From positions 1,124,239 through 1,188,238 of the forward strand of contig JAGNLW010000001.1 of assembly GCA_017999365.1 (NCBI GenBank): a stretch of 64,000 nt of DNA, given 5' to 3'. The DNA is from Candidatus Aminicenantota bacterium (GTDB lineage Bacteria; Acidobacteriota; Aminicenantia; Aminicenantales; Saccharicenantaceae). Positions within the stretch are counted from its first letter, which is position 1; each line of letters opens with the position of its first letter. This document shows positions 40,344-43,265 of the stretch, in pieces. The notes beneath the pieces were generated by a model that was not told the DNA's origin, searched no databases, and saw nothing but the letters and a program-made list of their open reading frames with translations. A program made the position numbers and the translations under genes.

Positions 40344-41378
40344 ATGAAAGCCGCCTTCCTGACCGGGGTCCGGTCGTTCGAGATCCGGGAGACCCCCGCG
40401 CCGCGCCTCGTCCGCGACGACGACGTCATCGTCAAGAGCCAGGCTGTCGGCGTCTGCGGCAGCGACCTCCATTACTACCTGTCCGAGAGCGTCGGCAGCG
40501 ACAAGGTCAAGTACCCCTTCATCCCCGGGCACGAGTGCGCCGGGGTCGTGGCCGAGACCGGCCGGGCCGTCAAGAAGGTCAAGGCGGGCGATCTCGTCGT
40601 GATCGAGCCGGCCGTCTCCTGCGGCGTCTGCGACCAGTGCCGGGCCGGGCGGCCCCACACCTGCCGCTGGCTCCTGTTCCTGGGGCACTACGGCGAGCTG
40701 ACCGGAGGCATGGCCGAGTTCGTGCTGGCCCCCGAGCGCAACTGCGTCCCCCTGCCGGGCCGGATGACGGCCGTCCAGGGCGCCCTGGCCGAGCCGCTGT
40801 CGATCGGCCTCTACGCGGCCGGGCTGGCCGGGTCGGTGCGGGGCAAGGCCGTGGCCGTCCTGGGGACCGGGCCCATCGGGCTGTGCGTCCTCATGGCCCT
40901 GCGGACCGAGGGCGCGGCGGCCATCTACGCCACCGAGAAGATCGAGGCCCGGGAGCGGGCGGCCATGCCGGCCGGGGCCCAGTGGACGGGCAATCCCGAC
41001 CGCGAGGACGTCGTCGGCTCCATCCTGGCCCACGAGTCGCAAGGCCTCGACGTCGTCTTCGAATGCTGCGGCGAGCAGTCCGCGCTCGACCAAGCCGTGG
41101 CCCTACTCAAGCCGGGCGGGACCCTGGTCGTCGTCGGCATCCCCGTCGCGGCCCGCGTCTCCTTCGACAGCTCCAAGATCCGGCGCAAGGAGATCCGCGT
41201 CCAGAGCGTCCGGCGCCAGAACAAATGCCTGGAGAAGGCCGTGGCCCTGATCCACTCGGGCAAGGTCAAGGTCGATTACCTGGCCACGCACTTCTTCGGG
41301 CTGGAACTCGCCCGCGAGGCCTACGAGACCGCGGCGGCCCGCAAGAACGGCGTCATCAAGGCCATCGTCACGCCCTGA
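40344..41378 (+). CDS. Zinc-dependent medium-chain alcohol/polyol dehydrogenase
   Basis: 344-residue MDR enzyme. Catalytic zinc residues C38 (VGVCGSDLHYY), H63-E64 (PGHECAG) are present; the structural zinc cysteines are C93, C96, C99 and C107 (CGVCDQC...HTC). The Rossmann nucleotide-binding motif is LGTGPIGLCVLMAL. The nearest family is sorbitol/L-threonine/polyol dehydrogenase. The substrate may be a pentitol or other polyol, given the arabinose genes upstream, but nothing in the sequence proves this. It is followed 19 bp later by the interrupted membrane-protein gene, so the two are probably an operon. Confidence 0.88.
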   Translation: MKAAFLTGVRSFEIRETPAPRLVRDDDVIVKSQAVGVCGSDLHYYLSESVGSDKVKYPFIPGHECAGVVAETGRAVKKVKAGDLVVIEPAVSCGVCDQCRAGRPHTCRWLLFLGHYGELTGGMAEFVLAPERNCVPLPGRMTAVQGALAEPLSIGLYAAGLAGSVRGKAVAVLGTGPIGLCVLMALRTEGAAAIYATEKIEARERAAMPAGAQWTGNPDREDVVGSILAHESQGLDVVFECCGEQSALDQAVALLKPGGTLVVVGIPVAARVSFDSSKIRRKEIRVQSVRRQNKCLEKAVALIHSGKVKVDYLATHFFGLELAREAYETAAARKNGVIKAIVTP

Positions 41379-41397
41379 CCGGCGGCAGGAGATCCGG

Positions 41398-42261
41398 ATG
41401 AAAGAAGACAGGGACCACACCTTCGGCGCGCCCTTCGAGCGCGTCTTCGTCGGCGCCGTCGCCGTAGCGGCCACCCTTGTCCTGGCCTATCTCGCCGTCC
41501 AGGGCCCGCTCGTCCGCGGCGTCATCGCCTACAAGACCGTGCCGGGCATCGTCGGCCAGCTCATGGGCCAGGACGCCGTCAACCTGGTCCTGATGGCCCC
41601 TTTGCTGCTCGCCGGCGGCATCCTGCTCCTTCTCCGCCGGCCCTTGGCCAAGCTCCTTCTCATCGCCACGCCACTTTTCCTCATCTACTACGCCTTGAGC
41701 TACACCATCGGTTGGGAGTGGAGCTCGCCTGATTACGCGGGCAACAGCCAGCGCTGGTTCTTCCTCTATCTCTTCGTCCTCGTCGCGGCCCTCGTCATCC
41801 TGCTCTATACGCTGGCGGTCTTTCCCAAGGACGTCGAGAGCCGGTTCCGCAAAGGCGGCTTGGCCGTCTATTCCGCCGTGTTCGTCCTGTTCCTGCTCGT
41901 CTTCGCGGCCATGTGGGCCAAAGAGGTCCTCGAGGTCGTCGGGACCGGCACGAGCCGCGGCTACGACATCGCCCCGGCGGCCTTCTGGCTGGTCCGGGTC
42001 TTCGACCTCGGCTTCTCGATCCCCCTTGGCCTCGTCAGTGTCTACCTCCTGTGAGCCCGGCCGATCCAGGCCTACGCCGTCGTCTGCCTGTTCTACGGCT
42101 TCTTCTTCACCCAGATCGCAGCCGTGCTGGCCATGGGCTGGACCATGCTCATCACGAAAGACCCGACCTTCCTCTGGCGCGACCTCGCCGTCTTCCACGT
42201 CCTGGCCGCCGTCATCGTCTTCGGATTCTTCTATATCCGGAAGAATTACCGCTCGGTCTGA
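41398..42261 (+). pseudogene. Integral membrane protein gene interrupted by one in-frame TGA
   Basis: A reading frame with AGGAG and an ATG encodes about six hydrophobic segments (e.g. AAVAATLVLAYLAVQG, NLVLMAPLLLAGGILLLL, FFLYLFVLVAALVILLY). It reaches TGA at codon 219 (42052-42054) in SVYLL-TGA-ARPIQAYAV. The same frame then stays open for 68 further codons with two more transmembrane-type segments (VVCLFYGFFFTQIAAVLAMG, VFHVLAAVIVFGFFYI) and ends with a natural basic tail (RKNYRSV) and a second TGA at 42259-42261. A TGG-to-TGA (Trp) change is the simplest cause; a two-part or readthrough protein is the alternative. Family unknown; about eight transmembrane helices when joined. Confidence 0.8.
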
Positions 42262-42357: not shown

Positions 42358-42386
42358 TTGACACATATGTGTGAGTGTGTAATGAT
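42358..42386 (+). promoter_or_regulatory. Promoter with operator palindrome for the orphan antitoxin
   Basis: TTGACA (42358-42363), 17 bp, AATGAT (42381-42386). The spacer begins with the perfect 12-bp palindrome ACACATATGTGT (42361-42372). Predicted start 42393 equals the A of the ATG, with no ribosome site, so the message would be leaderless. The layout parallels the brnTA promoter. Confidence 0.6.
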
Positions 42387-42392
42387 ACACCT

Positions 42393-42650
42393 ATGGAAAA
42401 GAAACGCATGAAGAGAGTCAATGTCATCCTCGAAACGGAGCTCTACGACAAGGCCCGAGTCGTCGGTTTCATCAGGAAGAAAAGCCTTTCCGAGATCGTC
42501 CGTGACGCCCTTCGCGATTGGCTGACGACGAACGTCGATGAAAGGGCCGAGTTGGTTCTTTCAGAGAAGGATGAACGCCGCATCCTCAAGATCCTGGCTG
42601 AGGACGACTTCGTCCCTATGGAACAAGTCAAGAAAGAGCTCGGCCTCTAG
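42393..42650 (+). CDS. Ribbon-helix-helix-type antitoxin (orphan)
   Basis: 85 residues. The N-terminus MEKKRMKRVNVILETELYDKARVVGF is a basic strand followed by a helix, and KKSLSEIVRDALRDWL is the second helix (ribbon-helix-helix antitoxin pattern, as in CopG/RHH-type repressors). The C-terminal tail (EQVKKELGL) is the usual toxin-contact region. ATG 42393 was preferred over an ATG six codons upstream because it matches the promoter and leaves the operator outside the gene. No full toxin gene follows; only a six-codon remnant. Confidence 0.72.
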   Translation: MEKKRMKRVNVILETELYDKARVVGFIRKKSLSEIVRDALRDWLTTNVDERAELVLSEKDERRILKILAEDDFVPMEQVKKELGL

Positions 42651-42674: not shown

Positions 42675-43265
42675 CTACTTCATCTTTTCCCGCATCTTGG
42701 CCTCGTTCTCGGAAAGCCAGTAGCCGCAGTCGAGCTCCAGGAAGACCGAAGTGTAGGGCACGGCCAGGGTCGTCTTGACCATGACGATCTTGAAGGCCTT
42801 GCCGGCCTGGTCGAGCCGGGCGATGAGCTCCTCGTGGAGGACGGGCGCGGCGCCCCGGCCCTTGAGCGCCTCATCCAGCCGCCGCTTGGCTTCGTCCGCG
42901 CCGGGCGCCAGGTCCTCGGTCACGTACGCCAGTTCCTTGTCGAGCCAGATCTTGGGCCGGATGTGCCTGGCCCCGTCGACGGCCTTTAGGACTTTATCGA
43001 GGACGGCGAAGTGGTCCTCGCCCGTCACGATGGTCTCGATGCCCGGCGAGATCTGGAGCGGGAAGGCCGAGTCGGCGACGACGATCCAGTTGCGGTGGCC
43101 GAGGGCCGGTAAATAGCCGGCCAGGACTTCCGTCCAGGGGGCGGGTTTGGCGATTTGAGCGGATGACACGGCGATCCCCTCCTTTCCTTCGTCGTCCTCG
43201 CGGTCGCAGGCGGCGGCCGCGAAGACGGCCAGCGCGATCCCCAAAACGGCTGCGAGTTTGCGCAT
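42675..43265 (-). CDS. RbsD/FucU-like (sugar mutarotase fold) putative lipoprotein
   Basis: 196 residues; ATG 43265 with GGAGGAGGG upstream gives a lipoprotein signal peptide with lipobox AAAAC (MRKLAAVLGIALAVFAAAAC in two pieces). The mature part resembles RbsD/FucU pyranase/mutarotase proteins: LPALGHRNWIVVADSAFPLQ matches the LGHGD-x-VVIADAGFP signature, including the conserved His and Asp. RbsD/FucU proteins are normally cytoplasmic, so an exported version is odd. A role in anomerising an extracellular sugar, perhaps arabinose, is inference. It could instead be a catalytically different domain that kept only the fold. Confidence 0.65.
   Translation of the reverse strand: MRKLAAVLGIALAVFAAAACDREDDEGKEGIAVSSAQIAKPAPWTEVLAGYLPALGHRNWIVVADSAFPLQISPGIETIVTGEDHFAVLDKVLKAVDGARHIRPKIWLDKELAYVTEDLAPGADEAKRRLDEALKGRGAAPVLHEELIARLDQAGKAFKIVMVKTTLAVPYTSVFLELDCGYWLSENEAKMREKMK

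What the first reader, a model, noticed from the sequence alone, without database searches (positions are those of the whole stretch)
41398..42261. Membrane-protein gene broken by a single in-frame TGA, with a coherent downstream frame
After TGA at 42052-42054 the same frame continues for 68 codons with two further membrane helices and a natural basic end. A Trp (TGG) to stop change would restore an eight-helix protein. TGA is used as a normal stop elsewhere in this window, so a changed genetic code is unlikely.
Basis: seen in the sequence. Interest (0 to 1): 0.7.

Follow-up and report, generated by a model that had tools for sequence, protein, structure and literature searches.

The report
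Membrane gene with premature TGA stop
In this environmental bacterium a gene for an uncharacterised eight-helix membrane protein carries one stop codon where every relative has tryptophan; it is most likely a very recently broken copy of a dispensable gene that related species keep losing, so the finding is ordinary.

Summary
ORF 41398-42261 has one in-frame TGA (42052-42054), then 68 open codons. It was the only in-frame stop in the 64-kb window with strong coding signal on both sides. All 21 distinct relatives found that span the site, from several phyla, have Trp there (TGG wherever the codon was read) and continue past it in the same frame. The stop removes the last two of eight helices and 19 family-invariant positions.

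The genome does have selA and tRNA-Sec, so selenocysteine had to be tested. The site has no bSECIS-like hairpin and its relatives have Trp, not Cys. TGA is the commonest terminator, RF2 is present, and the only tRNA-Trp found is CCA, so recoding is unlikely.

The gene is being lost across the family. In the same genus it is absent from seven species whose locus could be read and reduced to its C-terminal tail in one; other deletion remnants lie in a sister genus. Apart from the stop, this copy has no other lesion and is not accelerated. It is therefore either a very recent nonsense allele or, less likely, a consensus error in the assembly. Reads could not be inspected. Interest is low.

The parts
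41398..42054 (+). 5' part of the interrupted gene: 218 codons, six predicted membrane helices, ending at the premature TGA
42052..42054 (+). in-frame TGA at codon 219, a column that is Trp in all relatives
42055..42261 (+). 3' part: 68 codons in the same frame (two predicted helices, basic end) with the natural stop; homologous to the C-terminus of the full-length relatives
41387..41391 (+). AGGAG ribosome-binding-site-like motif 6 nt before the ATG, in the 19-nt gap behind the dehydrogenase gene
   Evidence: read directly
40362..41378 (+). upstream neighbour: zinc alcohol/sorbitol-type dehydrogenase (PF08240, PF00107), anchor of the conserved locus
42393..42650 (+). downstream neighbour: small ribbon-helix-helix-looking protein (my reading; no Pfam hit), conserved in the nearest relative and in G001

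Best explanation
A recent point nonsense mutation has broken a gene for an uncharacterised, dispensable eight-helix membrane protein. Translation begins at a normal ribosome-binding site behind the dehydrogenase gene, ends at codon 219 after six helices, and releases a product without the last two helices and 19 family-invariant residues; the 68-codon tail has no start of its own. Shown: the stop, its position at an invariant Trp column, the intact rest of the frame, and repeated absence or partial deletion of the gene in relatives. Inferred: that the stop is real in the organism, that the truncated product is inactive, and that the gene is dispensable.
For: The stop and open downstream frame are present, with coding signal on both sides. 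Trp is at this column in 21 of 21 distinct relatives. Otherwise the protein departs from only 1 of 89 columns invariant in the others, with no frameshift or second stop. It is not accelerated: own branch 0.069 against 0.22 for the intact sister G007, and Tajima relative-rate chi-square at most 1.2. dN/dS against G007 is 0.28 overall. Seven genus members with a readable locus lack the gene, and G005 keeps only residues 220-284 at the same place. G022 has an internal deletion and G028/G033 keep only about residues 252-286.
Against: Reads were not available, and one isolated lesion in an otherwise well-kept gene is also what a consensus error would look like. Only one genome of this species is held, so allele frequency is unknown. 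Activity of the truncated form cannot be excluded by sequence.
Confidence: 0.74

Rival explanations
1. The TGA is an error of sequencing, assembly or strain mixing in a metagenome-assembled genome; the gene is intact in the organism.
For: There is a single substitution-type lesion, no other decay, and no rate acceleration. Completeness and contamination values and the phylum's relatives being MAGs suggest this genome is one too.
Against: The gene is already lost or deleted in several relatives, so a real nonsense mutation needs no special explanation. In 464 kb only one other plausible in-frame-stop gene was found, so the assembly is not riddled with such stops.
Confidence: 0.2
2. The UGA is read through, by near-cognate tRNA-Trp or by selenocysteine insertion, and a full-length protein is made in useful amounts.
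For: selA and tRNA-Sec are in the genome, the frame after the stop is well kept, and UGA is known to be the leakiest stop codon (general knowledge).
Against: No hairpin meets the bSECIS model here, although 35% of random window positions do under the same loose test (criteria from PMC13188914). The column is Trp, not Cys, in all relatives. The nearest relative has no stop, so nothing is conserved. RF2 is present and the tRNA-Trp is CCA.
Confidence: 0.05
3. Two real genes, or a family form that naturally ends at this stop.
For: G005 keeps a tail of nearly the same extent (residues 220-284).
Against: All full-length relatives continue past the site. The tail has no start codon in its first 23 codons. 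In G005 the tail lies directly behind the dehydrogenase and fits a deletion scar.
Confidence: 0.01

Closest known systems
Recent bacterial pseudogenes formed by a single nonsense mutation
   Same: One in-frame stop at a conserved residue, rest of the frame intact, intact orthologue at the same place in the nearest relative
   Different: Nothing of note; the stop was not verified in reads
Intact orthologues in the sister genome G007 (L035, 81% identical) and in Candidatus Saccharicenans (L018, L019, L025, 63-64%)
   Same: Same length, eight helices and residues; G007 also shares the gene order dehydrogenase - membrane gene - RHH-like - OsmC - response regulator (with an insertion before OsmC)
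   Different: Trp instead of the stop; in Saccharicenans the gene follows an amidohydrolase
Bacterial selenoproteins with in-frame UGA
   Same: The organism has SelA and tRNA-Sec, and an in-frame UGA lies inside a conserved protein
   Different: No bSECIS-like hairpin, no Cys homologue, no conservation of the UGA, and a membrane-helix Trp position

Membership tests
Nonsense pseudogene | in-frame stop inside a frame that homologues keep open | tested here: met
   21 of 21 distinct relatives are open through this codon
Nonsense pseudogene | loss of conserved parts from the product | tested here: met
   19 invariant columns and two of eight helices lie at or after the stop
Nonsense pseudogene | relaxed selection or further decay after inactivation | tested here: inconclusive
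   no acceleration; dN/dS in the tail 0.48 against 0.25 before the stop, from few changes
Nonsense pseudogene | stop present in the organism's DNA | not testable with these tools
   no reads and no second genome of the species
Selenoprotein | organism has Sec machinery | tested here: met
   selA over cut-off, tRNA-Sec tca at G000:C4 about 171410
Selenoprotein | bSECIS hairpin 16-37 nt after the UGA with G in the first two loop positions | tested here: not met
   no candidate; criteria from PMC13188914
Selenoprotein | Cys (or Sec) at the aligned position in homologues | tested here: not met
   Trp in all
UGA reassigned to Trp (table 4 type) | tRNA-Trp with UCA anticodon, no RF2, TGA not used as a stop | tested here: not met
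   tRNA-Trp cca only, prfB present, TGA the commonest terminator
Named membrane-protein family | match to a curated profile or solved structure | tested here: not met
   no Pfam or NCBIfam hit over cut-off, no PDB sequence hit, no fold match at E <= 0.001

The most novel reading that the evidence does not exclude
The UGA is a leaky or regulated stop: the organism makes mostly a six-helix form and a little eight-helix protein by reading UGA as Trp, as a species-specific switch in a gene that other species are discarding.
Probability: 0.03. Interest if true: 0.5.

Novelty: new member of a known kind. Interest (0 to 1): 0.17.

Why it matters
It matters little beyond annotation. The gene should be marked as interrupted, not as a 218-residue protein. 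The surrounding result has modest value: an undescribed, widely but thinly spread eight-helix membrane protein family that is being lost repeatedly, by deletions and here by a point mutation, within one family of Candidatus Aminicenantes (Aminicenantota).

Tried and rejected
Selenocysteine: the machinery is present, but there is no hairpin and no Cys homologue. Local RNA folding: z -1.75 here against -2.0 in the Trp-bearing relative, so nothing special. Changed genetic code: rejected. The other in-frame TGA gene in the genome aligns to Arg, not Trp, which also speaks against a systematic TGA=Trp reading. Function by neighbours: upstream and downstream genes differ between lineages. Function by fold: only meaningless GPCR-like matches, TM below 0.35. 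Two first attempts at a coding-potential scan were too weak and were replaced. One tree was spoiled by a locus read on the wrong strand and was rebuilt. One malformed annotation query was made by mistake and returned nothing.

Full report
Observation. The sequence at 41398-42261 translates as 218 codons, TGA (42052-42054), then 68 codons to a second TGA. The upstream neighbour ends at 41378, and an AGGAG motif lies 6 nt before the ATG. A periodic Markov coding model, trained iteratively on 464 kb of this genome, gives the frame a lead of 34 nats over its best rival before the stop and 40 nats after. It is the only in-frame stop in the window that passes; nearly all others in the sample look like ordinary neighbouring genes, most with a start within a few codons. 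After the TGA no ATG, GTG or TTG occurs in the first 23 codons.

Relatives. Searches of related genomes and of the GTDB contig collection returned 27 hits that span the site, from 21 distinct genomes once records found twice are merged (merged by matching contig lengths and coordinates). They come from MAGs labelled Aminicenantes/Acidobacteriota, Bacteroidota, Ignavibacteriota, Elusimicrobiota, Edwardsbacteria and Chrysiogenales. Every one has Trp at the column, TGG wherever the codon was read, and continues past it in the same frame; all but one, L032, which lies at a contig end, reach the same C-terminus. A further genome, G171, also has Trp. With the stop read as Trp, the window protein departs from only 1 of 89 columns invariant in the 19 aligned relatives. 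Nineteen of the columns invariant in the whole alignment lie at or after codon 219. The AlphaFold model (mean pLDDT 83.9) has eight long helices or helix pairs, the stop falling at the end of the sixth.

Is it really a stop? The genome has prfB (RF2) and tRNA-Trp with CCA only, and TGA is the commonest terminator. However, the bSECIS constraints summarised in PMC13188914 are not met by any hairpin after this UGA, while 35% of random positions pass the same loose test. Nearly all selenoproteins have Cys homologues (PMC13188914), whereas here all relatives have Trp. A second in-frame TGA gene, at G000:C4:132339, aligns to Arg in its only close relative. This looks like ordinary nonsense change, not a systematic reading of TGA as Trp.

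How old is it? There is no second stop and no frameshift. In the protein tree the window copy has a shorter branch (0.069) than its intact sister G007 (0.22), and relative-rate tests show no acceleration. dN/dS against G007 is 0.25 before and 0.48 after the stop (0.35 for the neighbouring dehydrogenase); the difference rests on few changes and is not a firm signal. The inactivation is therefore very recent, or the stop is not in the organism.

Loss across the family. In the same genus the locus dehydrogenase - OsmC is conserved. The membrane gene lies there in the window genome and in G007. It is absent from seven species whose locus could be read (G001, G002, G003, G004, G009, G011, G012). 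In G005 it is reduced to residues 220-284 directly behind the dehydrogenase. On a tree from the flanking genes the G005 remnant sits on the opposite side of the genus from the window and G007. This favours ancestral presence followed by several losses, though the tree is unrooted and re-acquisition is not excluded. In the sister genus (Candidatus Saccharicenans by the matching contigs), six genomes have it intact, G022 has an internal deletion (about residues 67-237 missing, frame shifted), and G028 and G033 share a remnant of about residues 252-286. Across the order 13 of 94 genomes match, including one weak partial hit in another family, and across a sample of the phylum 8 of 297 match. The gene is thus an accessory, easily lost one, and a point nonsense mutation is an unsurprising further step.

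Function of the protein. No Pfam or NCBIfam family reached its cut-off. No PDB chain matched by sequence or by fold at E <= 0.001. Neighbours differ between lineages: sugar dehydrogenase here, amidohydrolase in Saccharicenans, others elsewhere. My best guess is a stand-alone inner-membrane protein of small-molecule transport or sensing; this is inference only.

Verdict. Most likely this is a recent nonsense allele of a dispensable membrane-protein gene (0.74); a consensus error is the main alternative (0.2). Interest is low.

Noticed in passing
L122:11985-12698 (+) = G000:C4:131985-132698, outside the window: A second gene of this genome, probably an outer-membrane beta-barrel protein, is interrupted by one in-frame TGA (G000:C4:132339); the relative in G001 (L141, 49-52% identical) has Arg (CGG) there and is open.
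   Followed up: partly
G000:C4:158027-159385 and about C4:171409-171503 (L063, L105): The genome encodes SelA and tRNA-Sec, so true selenoproteins with in-frame TGA should exist and may be mis-annotated as truncated.
   Followed up: partly
window 42675-43259 (-); L110, L115: The neighbouring gene (weak RbsD/FucU match) is also reduced to a C-terminal remnant in G004 and G011, so the stretch between the dehydrogenase and OsmC genes is a hot spot of gene loss in this genus.
   Followed up: partly
L111 (G005), L117 (G022), L118 (G028), L119 (G033): All four decayed copies of the membrane gene keep the C-terminal end and lose the front or the middle; this may be chance (G028 and G033 look like one event).
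   Followed up: no
window 42358-42386 (+): Good sigma-70-like promoter match (TTGACA, 17 nt, extended TG, AATGAT) in front of the small RHH-like gene; the TTGACA part is kept in G001.
   Followed up: no
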